Source: Agromyces allii (GTDB lineage: Bacteria > Actinomycetota > Actinomycetes > Actinomycetales > Microbacteriaceae). Taken from it: DNA of 64,000 nucleotides. The stretch is from NCBI RefSeq assembly GCF_009749385.1, contig NZ_WBIN01000010.1, positions 124,001 through 188,000 on the forward strand. The letters are read 5' to 3'. This document shows positions 22,578-29,972 of this stretch, one piece after another (position 1 is the stretch's first letter; each line of letters opens with the position of its first letter). Under the pieces are notes generated by a model, which saw nothing but the letters and a program-made list of their open reading frames with translations, made no database searches and was not told the origin of the DNA. The position numbers were made by a program, and so were the translations under genes.

Positions 22578-22625
22578 GGTCGCCTCCTCGCGCAGAGTCT
22601 GGCAGAGGAACACACGGCCACGCAC

Positions 22626-23107
22626 ATCCGCGTGATGATCCGCCTGCTGCGCCAGATGTTCGCCGTGCCCGAAGAGATACGCATCACTGGCGTGATCTAT
22701 CTCCCCTGGCGCCCGGGTGACGCGATCACGAGCCAGCTCCTCCGCGACCTGCCGACCGCTCGCATCGAGGCCGCGATCAACCAGCGCCTCCTCGCGATGA
22801 AGTGAACTGCGACGATCATGGGCGACAAGATCGTGCTGCCCTCAGGCTGCAGAATCAGCTGGCGCGACCTACTCAATCCCCTCGGTGAGCCGAATAAGAC
22901 GCCCGACTTCCACGAGTTGGTCGCCCTGCAGCACGGCCAGCTCACCCGGCGACAGAAACCCTGAGCGCGACGATGGCGGAGATCAACGGCGTGGCCCTCT
23001 CCACCGCTCAAGGCTAGATCACGAAGGCGCGCGAGCGCGGCCTGCTGCCGCCCAGTCGCGGCCGTGCAGGTGATGCCGCCGTCAGCTGCAGGATGAGCCT
23101 GTGGTAG
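22626..23107 (+). pseudogene. Decayed actinobacterial HTH-type hypothetical gene
   Basis: Three consecutive fragments read like one protein. The first ends IRITGVIYLPWRPGDAITS...INQRLLAMK with an in-frame TGA at 22803. The same frame then continues through PNKTPDFHELVALQHGQL to a stop near 22964. After a frame change comes MAEINGVALSTAQG, a stop, and ITKARERGLLPPSRGR, the ending typical of small actinobacterial proteins with a C-terminal winged or helix-turn-helix region. One frameshift and two stops make it non-functional as a whole. It marks the left end of the lower-GC island. The family resemblance is from memory, not from a search. Confidence 0.5.
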
Positions 23108-23234
23108 CGATCAGATGGCCGAGTCGTCGATTTTCTCCAGACCAACTGCGACGCTGGGCGAATTGGAGCACCGGATGCACCAGCCCGTCCTTTCGGCCCG
23201 GCTACGCCCCAACAAAGCATGGTCTTCGCTCGCA

Positions 23235-23702
23235 TTAGGACTGGGCAGTGCCCTCCGAGGCAGTCAGATCCAAGAAGGGCGCGAGACGCTGCGCGATCTC
23301 GCGCGCCTGATCAAGTGAGATCTCTGGGACGGGCCCGAAGTCAGTCCCACCACCAGGAAGAGTGCCGGCCACATGAAAATGCAGGTGTGGTATCTGCTGC
23401 GCCGCGGCGAGCCCATTGTTCTGCCACACCGCGATCCCTTCGGGTTTCTCTGCGCTGGCAATCGCTATGGCCGCGCCCCGCAGCGCCCGCATCAATGGAC
23501 CCGTAACCCCGTTCGGAATGTCCATTAGGGTTGCGAAATGCCCGACCGGCAGGACGAGCAGATGTGCACGGCCTCGCTGCTCCAGTGTGACGGCGACCGC
23601 GACGACGGAATTCCGATCGACGAAGACATAGGGTCGAGCGCCTGAAAGGTAGTCACAGAAGGCACAGCGGTCGGCCTCGGGCATCGCGATCCCGTCGCTC
23701 AT
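23235..23702 (-). CDS. HIT-family nucleotide hydrolase/transferase coupled to the Thoeris pair
   Basis: 155 residues. It has the histidine triad HLHFHVAG (His at about 106, 108 and 110) and the N-terminal CAFC pair of zinc-binding HIT proteins. HIT enzymes cleave nucleotide phosphoramidates, dinucleoside polyphosphates or related nucleotide conjugates through a His-nucleotidyl intermediate. Its ATG overlaps the stop of the Macro-domain gene by four bases, so it is translated with the Thoeris effector. HIT proteins are not a described Thoeris subunit that I know of. It might degrade the TIR-made signal, or be an unrelated passenger; this is inference. Confidence 0.9.
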   Translation of the reverse strand: MSDGIAMPEADRCAFCDYLSGARPYVFVDRNSVVAVAVTLEQRGRAHLLVLPVGHFATLMDIPNGVTGPLMRALRGAAIAIASAEKPEGIAVWQNNGLAAAQQIPHLHFHVAGTLPGGGTDFGPVPEISLDQAREIAQRLAPFLDLTASEGTAQS

Positions 23703-24535
23703 GCGCGCGCCAATCCCGACAGGAAGGCCTGAAGTTCCAAGTGGTTTAGCCGGTCGTACAGTTCGGGAAGCGCAACAATCCGCAATTCATGGCATACAGG
23801 GCTTTGCCGGGCAGCGATGATGTATGACAGGGCGATGAAGCGGATGGCGTCTTCGGCGGGTAGCACCGGGGAGAGCCCGGACTGACCACCGCCGAGCACG
23901 GGAATTGAGAGCGCCTCACCGTTGCTGTGGCGGCGAACCGACGCCCACAGATTTCCCAGGCTGAGCCAGAGACCATCCGCAGTTCCGTGGGCCTTGTTGT
24001 GAACGTCCATAGACGTGTACGCGACGAAGAAATCACGCGTTCCGTGAGACTCGAGAGGGACAACAGTACCGAGCTCGAAACGCGCAGTTCTCCCAGTCTT
24101 TGCCACGGTACCGATTGACACCAGCTTGGCGAGGTGAACGTCGATCGCTGCGTCAAGTCCATCTGCGTCACCGCGCCACTTCCGTGAAAGGTAAATTCCT
24201 TGCACGCTTCTTGGCGATATCTGCGGGGAACGCATATCGAATGTGTCGCAGGTCCCGACAACAAGATGGGTGTCCTGCTCAAAAAGGTCACCTCGAACGA
24301 CTTTGATCGTCGTATTCGGCGCGCTGAACGCCGCCTCGACTGGCCGCGGCCAGGCCCTCCACAGCCCAAACCCGATCGCGATGATCAGACATGGCCACAC
24401 GACCCACGCCTGCTCCGCTTCCAGGGTCCCGACGAACAGCGATACCAGTCCGGCGACCGCTGAAAACACGCCGAGCGCGGCGAACAAGCTAACGAAAAAT
24501 CGGCGCCAAAAGCGCCATCGCTTTAGGTGGTTCAC
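23699..24535 (-). CDS. thsA: Thoeris type II effector ThsA: two transmembrane helices plus Macro domain (DUF6430-like)
   Basis: 278 residues. Two hydrophobic helices (about 14-36 and 44-61) follow a very basic N-terminus (RWRFWRR). The rest is a Macro-like domain with the DUF6430/ThsA_Macro pattern: TIKVVRGDLFEQ, VVGTCDTFD, then ISPRSVQGIYLSRKW and a C-terminal IPVLGGGQSGLS. In type II Thoeris this protein binds a histidine-ADP-ribose signal through its Macro domain and kills the infected cell at the membrane. It follows the TIR gene by eight bases and is coupled to the HIT gene. Base composition is clearly lower in GC than the core genes. Family call is by motif memory. Confidence 0.82.
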   Translation of the reverse strand: MNHLKRWRFWRRFFVSLFAALGVFSAVAGLVSLFVGTLEAEQAWVVWPCLIIAIGFGLWRAWPRPVEAAFSAPNTTIKVVRGDLFEQDTHLVVGTCDTFDMRSPQISPRSVQGIYLSRKWRGDADGLDAAIDVHLAKLVSIGTVAKTGRTARFELGTVVPLESHGTRDFFVAYTSMDVHNKAHGTADGLWLSLGNLWASVRRHSNGEALSIPVLGGGQSGLSPVLPAEDAIRFIALSYIIAARQSPVCHELRIVALPELYDRLNHLELQAFLSGLARA

Positions 24536-24543
24536 AGCTGTCG

Positions 24544-25053
24544 TCAGATCCCAAGCCGCTCGTAGACTTCAGGCTTGTAGTGGTACGGCCCCTTATTCGA
24601 ACTTGACGCAAAGCTCGTGGCGTAGTTGTCAAGTGCGTACATGATGATGGCAGGCTGAAATGAAACCGACATCGTGTAGTAGTCCGCGGTCAAGAGCGGA
24701 CTAGGAATGAAACGCGTGTCGACGGTTCGGTCGCTGTCGTGATTGGCCACCACGACGGGGAGATTGAACTCCATCAAGACCTTGATCTCGTGCGCCAGGA
24801 ACGAGTCTCCGTCAGCCCCCTTCGCCTTCGCCTCGGGGGTGCCAATGAGCACGACCTGCTTCGCATTCTTCATTCGCTGCCGGAGGTTGTCCTTGATCGT
24901 CTCTGGCTTGCTTGTGTCTCGCGAGATAAACAGGTTGTGCGCGTCATAGAAATCGAAGTCGATCTTGTCGTTGTCGCGCCAAGCTTCCATCATCCGATAG
25001 AGGTGGATGTTCTCGCTCGCAAAGGCGACGTACGTCTTGTTGCGATAGCTCAT
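24544..25053 (-). CDS. thsB: Thoeris TIR-like sensor ThsB (DUF1863-type)
   Basis: 169 residues. The sequence follows the TIR-like ThsB pattern closely: KTYVAFASENIHLYRMMEAW, then DFDFYDAHNL, a helix ETIKDNLRQRMKNAKQVVLI, a HEIKVLMEFNLPVVVAN segment with the likely catalytic Glu at about residue 89, and the C-terminal KGPYHYKPEVYERLGI. ThsB senses phage and makes a NAD-derived signal for ThsA. The ATG at 25053 has GGGAG four bases upstream; a longer reading from 25071 (MPTGSQ...) is possible, and one from 25161 is unlikely. It is the first gene of a three-gene minus-strand operon. Confidence 0.85.
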   Translation of the reverse strand: MSYRNKTYVAFASENIHLYRMMEAWRDNDKIDFDFYDAHNLFISRDTSKPETIKDNLRQRMKNAKQVVLIGTPEAKAKGADGDSFLAHEIKVLMEFNLPVVVANHDSDRTVDTRFIPSPLLTADYYTMSVSFQPAIIMYALDNYATSFASSSNKGPYHYKPEVYERLGI

Positions 25054-25360
25054 TTGACTCCCAGTTGGCATCCAGCGTTTACCCAACTCATTTCTAGTAC
25101 CCGCCCCCGACAATGAGCAGTTGCACTCGCAAGGTAGAGCGAAAGTCGCCACGACTGGCACGGCTGCACGTCGGCCTCAGTACATGCTCTTGGCAAGATC
25201 ATGAATCACCGTTTCCCGGTGAACGAAGTGGCGAGCGAACTCGCAGATCGACGAACTTCTCGGCCACGACACCTGAAGCAACAGCCGAACACCAAGTACG
25301 GGGACGCCAGGAGCACCTCGGCCGTTGTGTGTCAAGCAGTGCTCTGACACTTGAGTCTCA
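25054..25360. other. Intergenic region upstream of thsB (about 300 bp)
   Basis: Lower-GC sequence containing the thsB ribosome binding site and presumably its promoter; I found no well-spaced -35/-10 pair. A stem-loop at its far end (25329-25350) probably terminates the upstream peptide operon. Short open frames here have no recognisable product. Confidence 0.6.
25329..25350 (-). terminator. Stem-loop after the RiPP-like operon
   Basis: GTGTCA at 25329-25334 pairs with TGACAC at 25345-25350, and AGCA/TGCT extends the stem inside with one bulged base. It starts 11 bases beyond the stop of the membrane-protein gene on the minus strand. There is no T-run, so it may act with Rho or be a weak terminator. 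Confidence 0.4.
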
Positions 25361-26017
25361 CTACGGCGCCGGTGAGGGGCTCGGGCTGACTACTACGACT
25401 AGTGGTGCGGGTGTTGTTGTTGCGTCGACGGGGAGAGCCCAGGAAATGGCGTGGGCTACAGCGAGCATCGTCAATCCCAACAACGCGATCAAGAACCCAT
25501 CACGGAACACGGTGACCATAGCGCGGCGCGTTCTTGAGGTCACGTGAACCGCCCAAGCATACTGACGCAGCTCCTCGCGCTGTGGGTTCTTGAGGTGAGC
25601 GAATGACTGCACGTCGACGACGCCAAGTACCTTCTTCGATACCGCCACGCCACCGAAAACAAGTACGGAGAGGGCAAGCTCGAGAATTCCAACCAGCCAA
25701 ATAATGAGCGGCCAGGAATTGGTGGGCACGACTATCCAGAGCCGCTCGAAGGCGCCTGCGCTGAGTCCTGCCGCTGCTATCACCGCAGTAAGGGCGAATT
25801 CCGCGCGTCGACGCACAGCCTCGACACCTACTGTTTCGGACTTCAGACGCTCACTATAAACGTCACGAAATGCGCTGATATTCCGCCTATGCGCCCCGTC
25901 AATCCACTCCGTGCTAGGAGGCGCGGCTTTCGGCAGCCACACCGTTCTGCCGAAGAAAAGACCCGCGATGGTTGTCCCCAGCATCCGAGCTTCGTCACGG
26001 AGTTCAGCCAAGCTCAT
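25361..26017 (-). CDS. Three-helix membrane protein of the ATP-grasp peptide operon
   Basis: 218 residues, family not recognised. The first 90 residues are soluble and charged (LAELRDEARMLG...), followed by helices at about 93-112, 121-146 and 190-210. The second and third helices are separated by a loop with QREELRQYAWAVHVTSRTRR. The tail is Pro/Thr/Ser-rich. The ATG overlaps the stop of the ATP-grasp gene (ATGA), so it belongs to the peptide operon, where a membrane protein could serve export, immunity or be the effector. No ABC or protease motif is present. Composition is lower in GC than the core genome. Confidence 0.8.
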   Translation of the reverse strand: MSLAELRDEARMLGTTIAGLFFGRTVWLPKAAPPSTEWIDGAHRRNISAFRDVYSERLKSETVGVEAVRRRAEFALTAVIAAAGLSAGAFERLWIVVPTNSWPLIIWLVGILELALSVLVFGGVAVSKKVLGVVDVQSFAHLKNPQREELRQYAWAVHVTSRTRRAMVTVFRDGFLIALLGLTMLAVAHAISWALPVDATTTPAPLVVVVSPSPSPAP

Positions 26018-26979
26018 GGACGCTCCAGAAGTAGGTCTGCGATTGCGTCGGCGACTGCGATGCCGATCTTTCTCGGCAGAAAGAGCCACTGCCCGCCTGG
26101 ATTCACATCGACAAGGATCGATTCGCCCGCTTCAGTCCGTATCCAATCTTGGCTTGAGTATCCCAACTCGAGATCCTGTGCGACCAGCAATGCCCTGTCT
26201 CTAACGAGCTGTGGCACTTCTTCGAGTTCTTGAAAGCCGGAGTGATTGGCCGAGCACTGTCGCCAATCGGCCGGTGCGCCCACCTGCACATCTAGAGCGG
26301 CCGCCCAGAGGCGATTCCCAACCGTTACGACGCGAAGATGTTGCGACGCGTGCAGACGTTCCTGAATCATGAAGGGCGCTGAACTCAGAGCCTGCAAGCG
26401 AGCATCGTCTGGCATCATTGGCTCTACGAACACCGTTCGGACTTCTCCTTCAGAGATGAATTGGCCTGTGCCTAGAGGTTTGACCACAATCTCATCGGTG
26501 AAGGTAGCCGTGACGGCGTCCCGGCTTGTAGTCACCACCGTTCGCGGATACGGCACACCAAGCGACCTCGCTGACTGCCATTGTGAGACCTTCGATTCAG
26601 CGCGCCTTAGAGCCTGGGGTTTTGTGACCCACCCAGCATTGGCGGCATCGATCAACGATGAGTACGCCGAGTACCACGTGCCCAGTTCCAGCGCCTTCAC
26701 CGAGCCAGTTTCAACCCCGAGTCCCCACTCTGCACGGTGGAACCTACGCAGCCAGCCCTGACGGCGCCGGCCGAGGTCTATCCACTCTCCGTCCAACTTC
26801 ACGGAGCAGCCGCTGTCGTCAATTGAAAGTCCCGAAGCGCCGCCATTATCAATGATCAGGTCAAGATCGAGCACCAAGGCATCCTGCCCCCGCCCCGCGA
26901 GCGCATCTACAACAACTGCAACATGCGGATCCTCTCGGTGCCCCACAATGATTGGTGCCTCTCTACCCGACGGCGTCAA
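26014..26979 (-). CDS. ATP-grasp ligase of the graspetide (MvdD-like) type
   Basis: 321 residues with the ATP-grasp layout of peptide macrocyclases: an N-terminal strand APIIVGHREDPHVAVVVDAL, central 'SKVSQWQSARSLGVPYPRTVVTT', the nucleotide-binding DEIVVKPLGTG, 'MIQERLHASQHLRVVTVGNRLWAA' (Glu and Arg of the active site) and 'ILVDVNPGGQWLFL' (metal-binding Asp and Asn). This ending is typical of graspetide ligases, which join Ser/Thr/Lys side chains to Asp/Glu of a precursor. The start is TTG at 26979, overlapping the stop of the upstream small peptide as TTGA. The natural substrates are probably the two peptides immediately upstream. Confidence 0.85.
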   Translation of the reverse strand: MTPSGREAPIIVGHREDPHVAVVVDALAGRGQDALVLDLDLIIDNGGASGLSIDDSGCSVKLDGEWIDLGRRRQGWLRRFHRAEWGLGVETGSVKALELGTWYSAYSSLIDAANAGWVTKPQALRRAESKVSQWQSARSLGVPYPRTVVTTSRDAVTATFTDEIVVKPLGTGQFISEGEVRTVFVEPMMPDDARLQALSSAPFMIQERLHASQHLRVVTVGNRLWAAALDVQVGAPADWRQCSANHSGFQELEEVPQLVRDRALLVAQDLELGYSSQDWIRTEAGESILVDVNPGGQWLFLPRKIGIAVADAIADLLLERP

Positions 26980-27137
26980 CGCAGCGTCAATACAAGAGGG
27001 GCGACAGTCTCGTCAGAATCGGAAGTCTCGATTGACTCGGTGATCGTTGCGGTGCCGCGCGTCCCAACATCAACCGGGGAGGGGCGAGCCAACTCGGAGA
27101 ACAACGACGGGCCGGTAGACCCGATCGGCATCAGCAT
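26976..27137 (-). CDS. Putative graspetide-like precursor peptide B
   Basis: 53 residues from the ATG at 27137 (or 51 from the ATG at 27131, which shares a base with the stop of peptide A). The leader has PSLFSELARPSPVDVG and the C-terminal part GTATITESIETSDSDETVA, rich in Thr/Ser and Asp/Glu, then APLVLTLR. Peptide A shares SLF..LA and a TATI...ETSD core, so the two are likely paralogous precursors. Its stop overlaps the start of the ATP-grasp gene (TTGA). It is an inference from shared motifs and gene order that the acidic/hydroxyl core is the modified part. Confidence 0.7.
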   Translation of the reverse strand: MLMPIGSTGPSLFSELARPSPVDVGTRGTATITESIETSDSDETVAPLVLTLR

Positions 27138-27295
27138 GCCACGCCAGGAATGATCGCCGCAGCGTACCCAAACCCATGGTCTGACGTCTCAATAGTCGCA
27201 GTCAGCGTCGAAGGCTCGGGCCGAGGGCGCGGATCAGGATCCGGGCGTGCGCCATCGACGGCGAGCAACGTGAACAATGACATTGAAGTGCTCAT
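27131..27295 (-). CDS. Putative graspetide-like precursor peptide A
   Basis: 54 residues starting at the ATG at 27295, which has a textbook AAAGGAG five bases upstream. The leader contains MSLFTLLAVDG, a Pro-rich spacer RPDPDPRPRPEP follows, then the core-like STLTATIETSDHGFGYAAA and a C-terminal Cys. The SLF..LA and TATI.ETSD features are repeated in the next gene, which it overlaps by 7 bases. Two short homologous peptides directly before an ATP-grasp ligase is the usual RiPP arrangement. Function and modification are not shown by sequence alone. Confidence 0.72.
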   Translation of the reverse strand: MSTSMSLFTLLAVDGARPDPDPRPRPEPSTLTATIETSDHGFGYAAAIIPGVAC

Positions 27296-27300
27296 CGCGA

Positions 27301-27307
27301 CTCCTTT
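27301..27307 (-). promoter_or_regulatory. Strong ribosome binding site of precursor peptide A
   Basis: AAAGGAG on the minus strand ends five bases before the ATG at 27295. It fixes the start of peptide A and stands out from the weak or absent sites of the coupled genes downstream, as expected for a precursor made in excess over its enzyme. Confidence 0.8.
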
Positions 27308-27904
27308 GGACATAGACGATTGAGGTGAGCGCAGGCTATCGCAGGGCCCCACGGCAAGCGTAGAGACGCGCCCCGGGCTCACCCTTCCGCAACCGAGAAT
27401 GCACGGCAGCATGATGTCCAGCAAGCACGAACGCGACCAATCGCACGAATAGTCACTCCCCGTGGTGGAGTGATCCTGTACCGGGTTCCGGGGCCGACGC
27501 GCGCCGGTACTCGAGTCCGATCGCTCCCGCGCCGACTAGGTCGCTGCGATGGACCGGGATCCGCCGATCATGGGCTCGCACGAGCTGCTGCGGCTGTACG
27601 CAAATCCGTGCAGGGACTCCACGCCAGCGAGAAGAATCTCCGTCCCAGCATGCACGCCATTTACGAGACCAACTTCAGCCGTGGCTCCGCGAACTCGAAA
27701 CGGGACGAAGGCTTGCGCCGATGACGGGATGCACGCGCTAGTGCGGAAGCGCTGTCTCAGCGAACGCGCGCCGAGCTTTCGAGATAGGAGGCAAGTACGG
27801 GGCTCGCCGACTCACCAAAACTGAGGATGAGCGCTGGCCGTCAGCGCGCCGCAGAGTGCCACACGGCAACGCCGGGTAGCGTCAGCACGTCGACTGGGGA
27901 GAAT
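27308..27904. other. Divergent intergenic region between the peptide operon and the DUF262 gene
   Basis: About 600 bp separate the minus-strand peptide operon from the plus-strand DUF262 gene, so promoters for both should be here. The only coding-like part is a short decayed HTH-like reading near 27549-27752. A GGGGAGA site lies just before the DUF262 ATG. I could not fix promoter boxes. Confidence 0.5.
27549..27752 (+). pseudogene. Possible remnant of a small AlpA-like DNA-binding gene
   Basis: The start DRDPPIMGSHELLRLY resembles the opening of small AlpA/MerR-like excisionase proteins (PIMGxHEL pattern), but the expected SRQRVYQ helix does not follow in frame; readings in other frames give only partial matches. 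It may be a frameshifted leftover of a mobile element. This is weak and based on the first 16 residues. Confidence 0.2.
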
Positions 27905-29473
27905 ATGGCACTGACCATCAGAAAGATCCTTGAGAACGTGCAGAGCGGTACCATCCGAATTCCTGCGTTCCAGCGCGGGTTCGTGTGGGACGCCGAGCGC
28001 GTTGCGTATCTGATGGACTCGATCTACAAGGGTTACCCATTCGGCGCCCTTATCCTTTGGCGGACCAAGGAAAAGCTGGTGCACGAGCGCCAACTCGGGC
28101 CGTTCCAACTGCCGGAGGTTGAACCGGATTACCCGATCGACTACGTGCTCGATGGGCAGCAGCGGCTTACATCGATCTTTGGTGTCTTTCAAACCGAGCT
28201 GACGGCTGTAGAGGATGCCCCCTGGACCGGCATCTACTTTGATATGTCGGCCGAGGCGGACCTACAGGAAAGCCAGTTCATCTGCCCTTCGAGCGAGGAT
28301 ATCGACCTTGCGCGTCACTTCCCGATTGGGACTTTCTTCGACGTAACCGCCTACCGAAAGGCCACAGCGGACCTTCCGGCAGACCGTGCGGAACTAATCG
28401 ACAAGGTGCAGTCCGTATTCAAAGAGGCGACCATTCCTACCCAGGAGGTCGCAACAGAGGATCGTGCCCGAGTCGCCATCGTCTTTGAACGAGTCAACAG
28501 ACTCGGCGTTGAACTGGATACGTTTCAGTTGCTGTCGGCCTGGACCTGGAGCGAGGACTTCGACTTACAGGAGCGCATTCGCGGCCTTGCGGAAGACGTT
28601 GCGCCCCACGGGTTTGGAGACATCTCTCAAGACACAAACCTGATCCTCCGCTGTTGCGCAGCAGTTGTCGCGGAGGACGCCTCGCCGGCCGCTCTCATGG
28701 GCCTCAAGGGCGCGGACGTTCGAGCCAGATTCGATGAGATCGAGAACGGCGTCAAGGGAGCGATCGATTTTCTCCGCAAGAATCTCCGCGTCCACCGTCT
28801 GATCAACCTCCCGTACTCGGCCCTACTCGTCCCCCTAGCCGTCTTCTTCGCTACTCCCGGCTCCAAGGGCGTAGATGTGTCGACCGCTCAGCGGGAGTCT
28901 CTGGAGCGCTGGTTCTGGAAGGCATGCTTCTCGCGTCGGTTCAGCGCGGGCGTGCTCCGAAATCTGAAGCGCGACATCGACGAGATGATCTCGCTTCGCA
29001 AGAACGGCGCCTCGGCTTTGGACAAGATCGCCGCGTCCACCGACGCGGAGTACTTTGCGGATCAGTCGTTCACCATCGGCACGGTGCACACCAAGACACT
29101 TATCCTTCTGCTCGCAAACAAAGATCCGAAGTCGTTCGTATCTGGGGCGGGCGTCGATCTTGGGCCGGTCCTACAGGCGTATAACCGCGAAGAATTCCAT
29201 CACCTCATGCCCCGTAGCTTCCTCAAGAAGAAGGGGATTTCTACCTCGGATATCAACAGTTTGGCGAACTTCGCGATCATCTCAGCGCAGGACAACAAGC
29301 GGCTCGGTGGCGTGGCGCCGAGTGTTTACAAGAAGAAGATGGATGTCGGATCGGTGGACGCCATCCTGGAAGCCGCTCTATGTCCGCACTCGCTGTTCGA
29401 TGACGACTTCCACACCTTCATCGAGGCGCGCGCCCGCACGCTTGCGGACTACGCAAACAAGAAGATGGCCTAG
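27905..29473 (+). CDS. Solitary DUF262/GmrSD-type protein with C-terminal HNH-like domain
   Basis: 522 residues. The N-terminal DUF262 domain shows IRIPAFQRGFVW (about 18-29) and DGQQR at 83-87, the NTP-dependent signature. A long helical middle ends in an HNH/DUF1524-like region with EEFHHLMPRSFL (about 429-440), then SLANFAIIS and NKRLGG. Such proteins act in type IV restriction of modified DNA or in phosphorothioate (SspE) and BREX-linked defence. No partner gene is adjacent. The ATG at 27905 has GGGGAGA upstream; earlier in-frame starts lack a site. Codon use is intermediate and fits the island. Confidence 0.88.
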   Translation: MALTIRKILENVQSGTIRIPAFQRGFVWDAERVAYLMDSIYKGYPFGALILWRTKEKLVHERQLGPFQLPEVEPDYPIDYVLDGQQRLTSIFGVFQTELTAVEDAPWTGIYFDMSAEADLQESQFICPSSEDIDLARHFPIGTFFDVTAYRKATADLPADRAELIDKVQSVFKEATIPTQEVATEDRARVAIVFERVNRLGVELDTFQLLSAWTWSEDFDLQERIRGLAEDVAPHGFGDISQDTNLILRCCAAVVAEDASPAALMGLKGADVRARFDEIENGVKGAIDFLRKNLRVHRLINLPYSALLVPLAVFFATPGSKGVDVSTAQRESLERWFWKACFSRRFSAGVLRNLKRDIDEMISLRKNGASALDKIAASTDAEYFADQSFTIGTVHTKTLILLLANKDPKSFVSGAGVDLGPVLQAYNREEFHHLMPRSFLKKKGISTSDINSLANFAIISAQDNKRLGGVAPSVYKKKMDVGSVDAILEAALCPHSLFDDDFHTFIEARARTLADYANKKMA

Positions 29474-29898
29474 GCACGTCATATCCTCTGGGGCACCCGC
29501 AGACGCCCAATCCGGGCTAGCGGAGGCCGTCTTGGGGGTTTGCGGCTGCCACGCCGCGCCATCGCGACCGATCGGAAATCGGAAATCGGGCACATCCTCA
29601 GAGCGCATGGTACTGCCCCTCGACGCGCCACCGACCCGGCCTCAGTACTCACTGGGTGATCGAGCGGGGTCGGGAAACGTGCTTTCAATCGCGGCGGCGA
29701 TCGATTTGGAGAATCGAGCGGCGTCGCTGACCGTGAAGCCGGCCCGAACCAAGAGACCATTTCGAAGCATCCCTGATCATAGGGGTATTGTCACCACAAG
29801 AATTGAGCGAAACCGGCCATGGCTCACTGAAAATCGAAGGGTCACCGGATCGGCGCCGTCTGAGCCGGGAGCACTCTCGTGCTCAGCAAAGGACTTCG
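29474..29898. other. Non-coding right arm of the island up to the tRNA
   Basis: About 425 bp between the DUF262 stop and the tRNA 3' end. It holds no convincing gene, integrase fragment or tRNA 3'-end duplicate. A short ATCGGAAATCGGAAATCGGG repeat lies at about 29571-29590. GC falls towards the tRNA. Confidence 0.5.
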
Positions 29899-29972
29899 AC
29901 GCGATGGCAGGATTTGAACCTGCGAATAGCGGGATATGAGTCCGCTCCCTTGGGCCGCTTGGGTACACCGCG
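29899..29972 (-). tRNA. tRNA-like gene with CAT anticodon (Met/Ile2 type)
   Basis: A 74-nt cloverleaf folds on the minus strand. The acceptor CGCGGTG pairs with CATCGCG, the D arm is CCC/GGG, and the anticodon arm is GCGGA-CTCATAT-CCCGC with loop anticodon CAT. A 5-nt variable loop precedes the T arm GCAGG-TTCAAAT-CCTGC. The first base pair is C-G, one anticodon-stem pair is A-C, and CCA is not encoded (TCGA follows). The body resembles tRNA-Tyr-like genes that are often mistranslated as VPKRPKGAD...RRFKSC. It could be a working tRNA, a tRNA-Ile2 or a degenerate copy. Its 3' end faces the island. Confidence 0.7.

What the first reader, a model, noticed from the sequence alone, without database searches (positions are those of the whole stretch)
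25361..27295. Compact RiPP operon with two overlapping paralogous precursors, an ATP-grasp ligase and a membrane protein
Two peptides of about 54 residues (one too short to be noticed by routine gene callers) share SLF..LA in the leader and a TATI...ETSD core rich in Thr/Ser and Asp/Glu. Peptide A overlaps peptide B, peptide B overlaps the ATP-grasp start (TTGA), and the ligase overlaps the membrane protein. A strong AAAGGAG precedes peptide A. The ligase has the graspetide-type ending DVNPGGQW. I do not recognise this core motif or the three-helix membrane partner from known graspetide classes.
Basis: partly seen in the sequence, partly recalled or inferred. Interest (0 to 1): 0.85.

Follow-up and report, generated by a model that had tools for sequence, protein, structure and literature searches.

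The report
Defence-island graspetide cassette with membrane partner
A compact set of four overlapping genes appears to make small ring-shaped peptides together with a membrane protein; it is passed between actinobacteria and often sits among anti-virus genes, so it may be a peptide-based defence system, which has not been tested.

Summary
On the minus strand, peptide A (27131-27295), peptide B (26976-27131), an ATP-grasp ligase (26014-26979) and a three-helix membrane protein (25361-26017) form a translationally coupled operon. The small frames are conserved and under purifying selection (pN/pS 0.27-0.45); a T..E[TS]xD core lies upstream of the ligase in 32 of 33 family loci. The ligase is a graspetide-synthetase homologue in its own fully supported clade, outside TgmB and MvdC/D. 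The membrane gene follows it in 31 of 33 loci and in 0 of 14 TgmB loci.

The operon lies in a roughly 7.3-kb low-GC island at tRNA-Met, absent from a related genome, beside Thoeris and a GmrSD-type gene. Relatives neighbour DISARM, Avs2, PifA-like, OLD-like or Thoeris genes. 88 cassette neighbours matched 144 PADLOC profiles; 88 neighbours of TgmB loci matched 5.

Best reading: a mobile graspetide cassette, a new variant of a known RiPP class, probably a conflict module and plausibly anti-phage with the membrane protein as effector. Bacteriocin-like cargo is the main rival. Ring formation and function are untested.

The parts
27301..27307 (-). AAAGGAG ribosome-binding site of peptide A, 5 nt before the ATG
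   Evidence: read
27131..27295 (-). peptide A, precursor, 54 aa (core STLTATIETSDHGFGY)
26976..27131 (-). peptide B, precursor, 51 aa from ATG 27131 (53 aa from ATG 27137; core GTATITESIETSDSDE)
26014..26979 (-). graspetide-synthetase-like ATP-grasp ligase, 321 aa, TTG start overlapping B's stop
25361..26017 (-). three-TM membrane protein, 218 aa, ATGA overlap with the ligase
24544..25053 (-). ThsB (TIR-like) of a Thoeris system, neighbour; ORF as listed reaches 25161
23699..24535 (-). ThsA (macro domain) of a Thoeris system, neighbour
23235..23702 (-). HIT-domain protein, follows ThsA, neighbour
27827..29473 (+). GmrSD_N-domain protein (PDC-M55C), neighbour
29898..29972 (-). tRNA-Met at the edge of the island
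22609..29875 (.). genomic island that holds the cassette; absent from related genome G054

Best explanation
A mobile four-gene graspetide cassette. Shown by sequence: two paralogous precursors, one graspetide-synthetase homologue and one three-TM protein are co-conserved and translationally coupled, and the cassette is found in defence islands and near conjugation genes. Inferred: the ligase recognises the SL[FY]xxL leader and joins Thr/Ser hydroxyls (about positions -7 and -4) to the carboxylates of the conserved Glu (0), Asp (+3) and, where present, Asp/Glu (+5), giving two or three omega-ester rings per core. Inferred, less certain: because no RiPP leader peptidase or exporter was recognised among the neighbours scanned, the constrained peptides act in or at the producing cell with the membrane protein, as a stand-alone conflict module that most likely protects against phage, with the three-TM protein as a membrane-damaging effector that the peptides hold in check or trigger. 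The confidence given is for the whole statement; for 'graspetide cassette' alone I would put about 0.9.
For: Ligase: NCBIfam and PDB matches to graspetide synthetases; R78 R79 K167 Q206 R216 D238 W239 R240 D278 N293 shared with MvdC/D; own clade of 33 rows with 100/100 support. Precursors; among 56 unique cores T at -4 in 43 and D at +5 in 41 (E, [TS] and D at 0, +1, +3 were fixed by the search); repeats of the same unit in single precursors of L035-L037, L039, L041, L042. Membrane gene directly downstream in 31 of 33 family loci and 0 of 14 TgmB loci; 23 of the 31 rows built the profile, and of the 8 others only L027, L039 and L040/L052 are not near-copies. In 396 phylum genomes its profile found two strong cases, both with the cassette, and one weak partial match without. 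Defence setting: 88 neighbours at 24 cassette loci matched 144 PADLOC profiles against 5 for 88 neighbours at 13 TgmB loci, E <= 1e-10; at least 10 of 24 loci have such a neighbour. Whole-genome rates of the same profiles: ThsA 3 of 299 (own genome included), PifA 0 of 124, Avs2 1 of 124, DrmA 14 of 124. Mobility: empty site, low G+C, TrwC relaxase near L015, identical ligases in different genera.
Against: No dehydration, ring or phage protection has been shown. Position beside defence genes does not prove a defence role: lanthipeptide clusters also co-locate with defence genes (PMC12715929, abstract). PMC8939145 proposes transport for the membrane protein of thuringinin loci. The membrane protein matches no known effector by sequence and no informative fold. 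L010 and L044 lack it; L010 has an EcsC-domain gene upstream of its precursor. L043 shows no precursor. Neighbours tested singly in L010, L020, L029, L031, L033, L035, L038 and L044 had no PADLOC match at 1e-5, and the L020 one is a pyruvate-oxidase-like enzyme. DrmA is not rare in the phylum (14 of 124). The TgmB control comes mostly from Streptomyces and Amycolatopsis, other taxa than most cassette loci, and PADLOC profiles are redundant, so 144 against 5 overstates the number of proteins. Only 30 neighbours (window included) were scanned against Pfam beside the 8, so 'no exporter or peptidase' is a partial result.
Confidence: 0.5

Rival explanations
1. A mobile bacteriocin-like module: the modified peptides are exported and act on competitors, and the three-TM protein exports them or gives immunity. 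It sits beside defence genes because both are mobile-element cargo.
For: Lanthipeptide clusters are reported to co-locate with defence genes (PMC12715929, abstract); PMC8939145 (section 7) suggests transport for the membrane protein of thuringinin loci; cassette near TrwC relaxase genes; identical ligases in different genera; one to three precursors per locus.
Against: No leader peptidase or ABC exporter recognised in the neighbours scanned; three TM helices without an ATPase are an unusual exporter (general knowledge); TgmB graspetide loci, also candidates for secreted products, show few defence neighbours.
Confidence: 0.3
2. An intracellular protease inhibitor or regulator: the ringed peptides block a host or phage protease, and the membrane protein anchors or localises them.
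For: PMC8939145 (passage) states that all graspetides characterised by then are protease inhibitors; the core has the Thr/Glu/Asp pattern of the class.
Against: No protease gene travels with the cassette in the neighbours scanned; the constant membrane partner is not explained.
Confidence: 0.1
3. Not a ring-former: the ATP-grasp enzyme adds amino acids to the peptides in the manner of RimK, or the small proteins are antitoxin-like partners of a membrane toxin.
For: A weak match to the RimK family (5.2e-7); tight coupling of small genes with a membrane protein resembles addiction modules.
Against: Matches to graspetide synthetases are far stronger (9.3e-38 and 1.7e-35); conserved Thr/Ser plus Asp/Glu cores in 32 of 33 family loci.
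Confidence: 0.06
4. An accessory of the neighbouring Thoeris system.
For: ThsB-ThsA-HIT lies next to the cassette in 8 of 33 family loci, in two layouts.
Against: Seven of the eight are near-copies of one element; the other 25 loci lack Thoeris relatives in the stretches searched; two Thoeris-HIT operons have no cassette within the 8.4 and 15 kb fetched, the first of them near a contig end.
Confidence: 0.04

Closest known systems
Thuringinin-type graspetides (Lee groups 3-6; Makarova clusters 13 and 18)
   Same: Single ATP-grasp ligase, Thr/Glu/Asp cores (repeated in some relatives here), and an uncharacterised membrane protein in the locus (PMC8939145). Several relatives (e.g. L033, L040, L046) fit TxxTxxxExxDxD, which I recall, from no call, as the thuringinin motif.
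   Different: I had no thuringinin ligase or cluster 18 sequence to compare, so kinship is open. Window peptide A lacks the last Asp and peptide B has shifted Thr spacing.
TgmB / graspimiditide type (TIGR04187; group 13)
   Same: Best-scoring NCBIfam model of the ligase (130.2 bits); actinobacterial.
   Different: Far below the 350-bit cut-off; separate clade; 14 TgmB loci lack the membrane gene and 13 show few defence neighbours.
Microviridin MvdC/MvdD
   Same: Same enzyme family and shared invariant residues.
   Different: One ligase here, not two; different core; no ABC transporter gene seen beside it such as that in the Nostoc locus L074.
Proteobacterial plasmid trios (L064, L066, L068-L071)
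   Same: Small gene + ATP-grasp + downstream membrane protein; hhalign of the two membrane families gives probability 63%, E 6.9e-5 over 148 columns.
   Different: Precursor repeats of the kind TxTxxxxExDD in L064, L066, L070, L071, not in L068 or L069; different ligase clade; kinship of the membrane proteins is suggestive only.
Lanthipeptide clusters near defence genes
   Same: RiPP genes close to anti-phage genes (PMC12715929, abstract).
   Different: Different chemistry and a different kind of locus, not a coupled four-gene cassette.

Membership tests
Graspetide biosynthetic cluster | ATP-grasp enzyme of the graspetide-synthetase family | tested here: met
Graspetide biosynthetic cluster | adjacent small precursor with conserved leader and Thr/Ser + Asp/Glu core | tested here: met
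Graspetide biosynthetic cluster | side-chain ester or amide rings (loss of 18 Da per ring) | not testable with these tools
   needs co-expression and mass spectrometry
TIGR04187 TgmB subfamily | score above curated cut-off (350 bits) | tested here: not met
   130.2 bits; separate clade
MvdC / MvdD (microviridin) equivalogs | score above curated cut-offs (425 / 475 bits) | tested here: not met
   103.9 and 98.6 bits
Thuringinin-type group | core TxxTxxxExxDxD (motif recalled, from no call) | tested here: inconclusive
   fits several relatives, not window peptides A or B exactly
Thuringinin-type group | cluster 18 membrane protein | not testable with these tools
   no cluster 18 sequence in hand; only the paper's description
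Anti-phage defence system | residence in defence islands above control | tested here: met
   144 against 5 PADLOC profiles; the control is not taxon-matched
Anti-phage defence system | protects against phage | not testable with these tools
   needs plaque assays
Thoeris component | constant partner of ThsA/ThsB | tested here: not met
   Thoeris relatives in 8 of 33 cassette loci; two Thoeris operons without cassette in the stretches fetched
SLATT or Pycsar-type TM effector (Pfam) | Pfam profile match of the membrane protein | tested here: not met
   no such family among the 19 listed at E <= 1 for 23 members
SLATT or Pycsar-type TM effector (fold) | same fold as a solved effector | tested here: inconclusive
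   no informative match

The most novel reading that the evidence does not exclude
A graspetide-based anti-phage immune system: a ribosomal peptide cyclised by an ATP-grasp enzyme controls a small three-TM effector, and the whole module moves between actinobacteria as defence-island cargo beside Thoeris, DISARM and Avs. Ring-bearing peptides would then be part of intracellular immunity, not only secreted inhibitors or toxins.
Probability: 0.38. Interest if true: 0.87.

Novelty: new variant of a known kind. Interest (0 to 1): 0.62.

Why it matters
Graspetides are a large RiPP class with few known functions. A clade that is tied to one membrane protein and often lives in defence islands gives a concrete, testable biological role, and would make omega-ester peptides candidate parts of bacterial immunity. 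It also adds an overlooked module, with one to three small genes per locus, to defence-island annotation.

Tried and rejected

Thoeris accessory considered and put low. tRNA 3'-end repeat as attachment site: not seen; a 16-nt exact repeat at 22710 and 30029 lies outside the tRNA and could be chance.

Limits: 88 of the 129 cassette neighbours and 88 of the 120 control neighbours listed were scanned, because of a residue limit; for cassette loci mostly the nearest two per side of at least 120 aa by a home-made gene caller, with one L023 relaxase and one small L023 gene (11698-12120) left out; for controls mostly the nearest three or four per side. Several of the 33 loci are near-copies (L026/L028, L040/L052, L021/L023, L015/L019), so counts are not independent events.

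Full report
What is there. The minus strand of 25361-27295 holds four coupled genes. Peptide A (27131-27295) has a strong ribosome site 5 nt upstream. Its stop overlaps the likely start of peptide B (ATG 27131) as TGATG. B's stop overlaps the ligase start as TTGA, and the ligase stop overlaps the membrane protein start as ATGA. Two starts differ from the simplest ORF listing: B probably begins at 27131 rather than 27137, because the closest relatives (L015, L019, L020) align to that start, and the membrane protein at 26017 rather than 26089, which gives the ATGA overlap.

The peptides are real genes. Relatives at 57-70% ligase identity keep both peptides in the same order. Between window, L020, L023 and L027 the two frames show pN/pS of 0.27-0.45 in four comparisons each. 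Searching 800 nt upstream of the ligase for T.{2,6}E[TS].D found it in 31 of 33 loci with 63 hits, against 0.03 expected per stretch. One of those 33 loci, L053, belongs to the TgmB clade and is one of the two misses; adding L015, 32 of 33 family loci have at least one precursor, the miss being L043. Random stretches of the same loci give a mean of 0.98 of 31 and a maximum of 5 in 300 draws; TgmB controls 1 of 14. Among 56 unique cores, T at -4 occurs in 43 and D at +5 in 41. Loci carry one to three precursors, and in L035-L037, L039, L041 and L042 one precursor carries two or three repeats of the unit.

The enzyme. NCBIfam places it with graspetide synthetases but far below each curated cut-off; a profile finds AMdnB, 5ig8, 5ig9, CdnC, 7drm and 9bou in the PDB. 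R78, R79, P145, K167, P202, Q206, R216, D238, W239, R240, D278, N293, P294 and G296 are invariant in 25 sequences including Nostoc MvdC and MvdD. A careful tree of 65 rows puts the 33 family members on one side of a branch with 100/100 support, apart from TgmB (12 rows), MvdC/D (2) and six proteobacterial plasmid relatives.

The membrane protein. It has no Pfam family. Three separate hydrophobic segments pass a simple hydropathy threshold in 21 of 23 members; L041 and L046 show two. The model is of good confidence (pLDDT 84.7) with no informative fold match. The profile finds the gene directly downstream of the ligase in 31 of 33 family loci; 23 of those rows built the profile, and of the other 8 several are near-copies. 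It is absent in L010 and L044 and from 14 TgmB loci. In a sample of 396 phylum genomes the profile had two strong matches, both at the cassette, and one partial match at 4.6e-8 without a ligase in the 14 kb fetched.

The setting. Window 23-30 kb has 57-63% G+C; 14-21 kb has 72-76% and 31-39 kb 70-74%. A tRNA-Met lies at 29898-29972. In related genome G054 the left flank (to 22608) and the tRNA side (from 29876) lie 52 nt apart, against 7,267 nt here; in G007 the same site carries about 9.5 kb of other DNA. The island holds ThsB, ThsA and a HIT gene, the cassette and a GmrSD_N protein. Across 24 loci, 88 neighbours matched 144 PADLOC profiles at E <= 1e-10, among them DrmA/DrmB, ThsA/ThsB, PifA, QatA and Avs2; 88 neighbours of 13 TgmB loci matched 5. 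By locus at least 10 of 24 have such a neighbour: window, L023 (Thoeris), L027 (OLD-like 9.4e-18), L030 and L047 (PifA-like), L032 (PDC-S28), L036 (Avs2), L037 and L039 (DISARM), L043 (PDC-S39) (for L023, L037 and L039 the assignment combines). Four more (L031, L034, L035, L042) have conflict-type Pfam domains above cut-off (pPIWI-associated nuclease, ApeA, STAND-type NTPase, AIPR) and L010 a NACHT match just below cut-off. Against this, neighbours tested singly in L010, L020, L029, L031, L033, L035, L038 and L044 had no PADLOC match at 1e-5, and those of L034 and L046 only marginal ones. Whole-genome rates of the same profiles: ThsA 3 of 299 family genomes, own included; PifA 0 of 124, Avs2 1 of 124 and DrmA 14 of 124 phylum genomes.

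Mobility. The cassette is rare: 3 of 397 other family genomes and 1 of 395 other phylum genomes at 1e-30. A TrwC relaxase lies near it in L015, and blast relatives of that protein lie in nine other loci. Ligases are identical in Microbacterium resistens and Gulosibacter chungangensis, and in two Nocardioides species.

How it probably works. Sequence shows a leader motif, a conserved acceptor/donor core, a synthetase homologue and a near-constant membrane partner. From the known chemistry of the class (PMC13097080: abstract, introduction and co-occurrence section read; PMC8939145: abstract, section 6 parts 1 and 2 of 3, sections 7 and 14, and passages read) I infer ester rings between the Thr/Ser and Glu/Asp of the core. 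From position, I infer a conflict role. The step from there to 'anti-phage effector controlled by a graspetide' is inference, and I put it at about 0.4; a mobile bacteriocin-like module is the chief rival, supported by the report that lanthipeptide clusters also co-locate with defence genes (PMC12715929, abstract). PMC11118758 (passages read) reports co-expression of RiPP families with anti-phage families in ocean metatranscriptomes.

Relation to Thoeris. ThsB-ThsA-HIT sits beside the cassette in two layouts (window; the L021-L026 and L028 element), with 67-73% (ThsB), 44-46% (ThsA) and 51-52% (HIT) identity between them. The same Thoeris-HIT operon occurs without a cassette in the stretches fetched from G303 and G141 (L094, L095), and other cassettes have other neighbours. 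I therefore read the cassette as a stand-alone module.

Novelty. Graspetides, and even graspetide loci with an uncharacterised membrane protein, are known (PMC8939145). What I did not find in print (searches listed under Tried and rejected) is this clade, its near-constant three-TM partner and its defence-island residence. I rate it a new variant of a known kind.

Noticed in passing
window 23235-23702; L021-L026, L028, L094, L095: A HIT-domain gene follows the macro-domain ThsA in each of the ten loci of this Thoeris type that I looked at, with or without the cassette; it may be a third component of that system.
   Followed up: partly
window 22609-29875; L085 5414-14947; L086 1793-6286; L087 2175-2228: tRNA-Met is a hotspot: other DNA in two related genomes, empty in G054. 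The G007 cargo includes a 700-aa protein that looks NTPase-like by eye (no search run).
   Followed up: partly
L064, L066, L068-L071: Plasmids of Sinorhizobium, Pseudomonas aeruginosa, Rhizobium, Martelella, Agrobacterium and Croceicoccus carry a small gene + ATP-grasp + membrane protein trio; the Martelella one lies beside AbiE genes.
   Followed up: partly
L010 5180-5728: The Streptomyces plasmid member lacks the three-TM gene but has an EcsC-domain gene upstream of the precursor, a possible substitute partner.
   Followed up: no
L029 14493-16535: A DAC-domain protein with DACNG/DACNH sensor domains near the cassette.
   Followed up: no
L002 (own genome, contig 4, 7950-8876): A second, distant graspetide-type ATP-grasp gene in the same genome; it groups with four from the same genus.
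   Followed up: no
phage record KF114876.1, 59396-60004: Leptospira phage LE1 encodes a RimK-like ATP-grasp distantly similar to the ligase.
   Followed up: no
window 27134-27136: Peptide A ends in a single Cys that the relatives listed lack.
   Followed up: no
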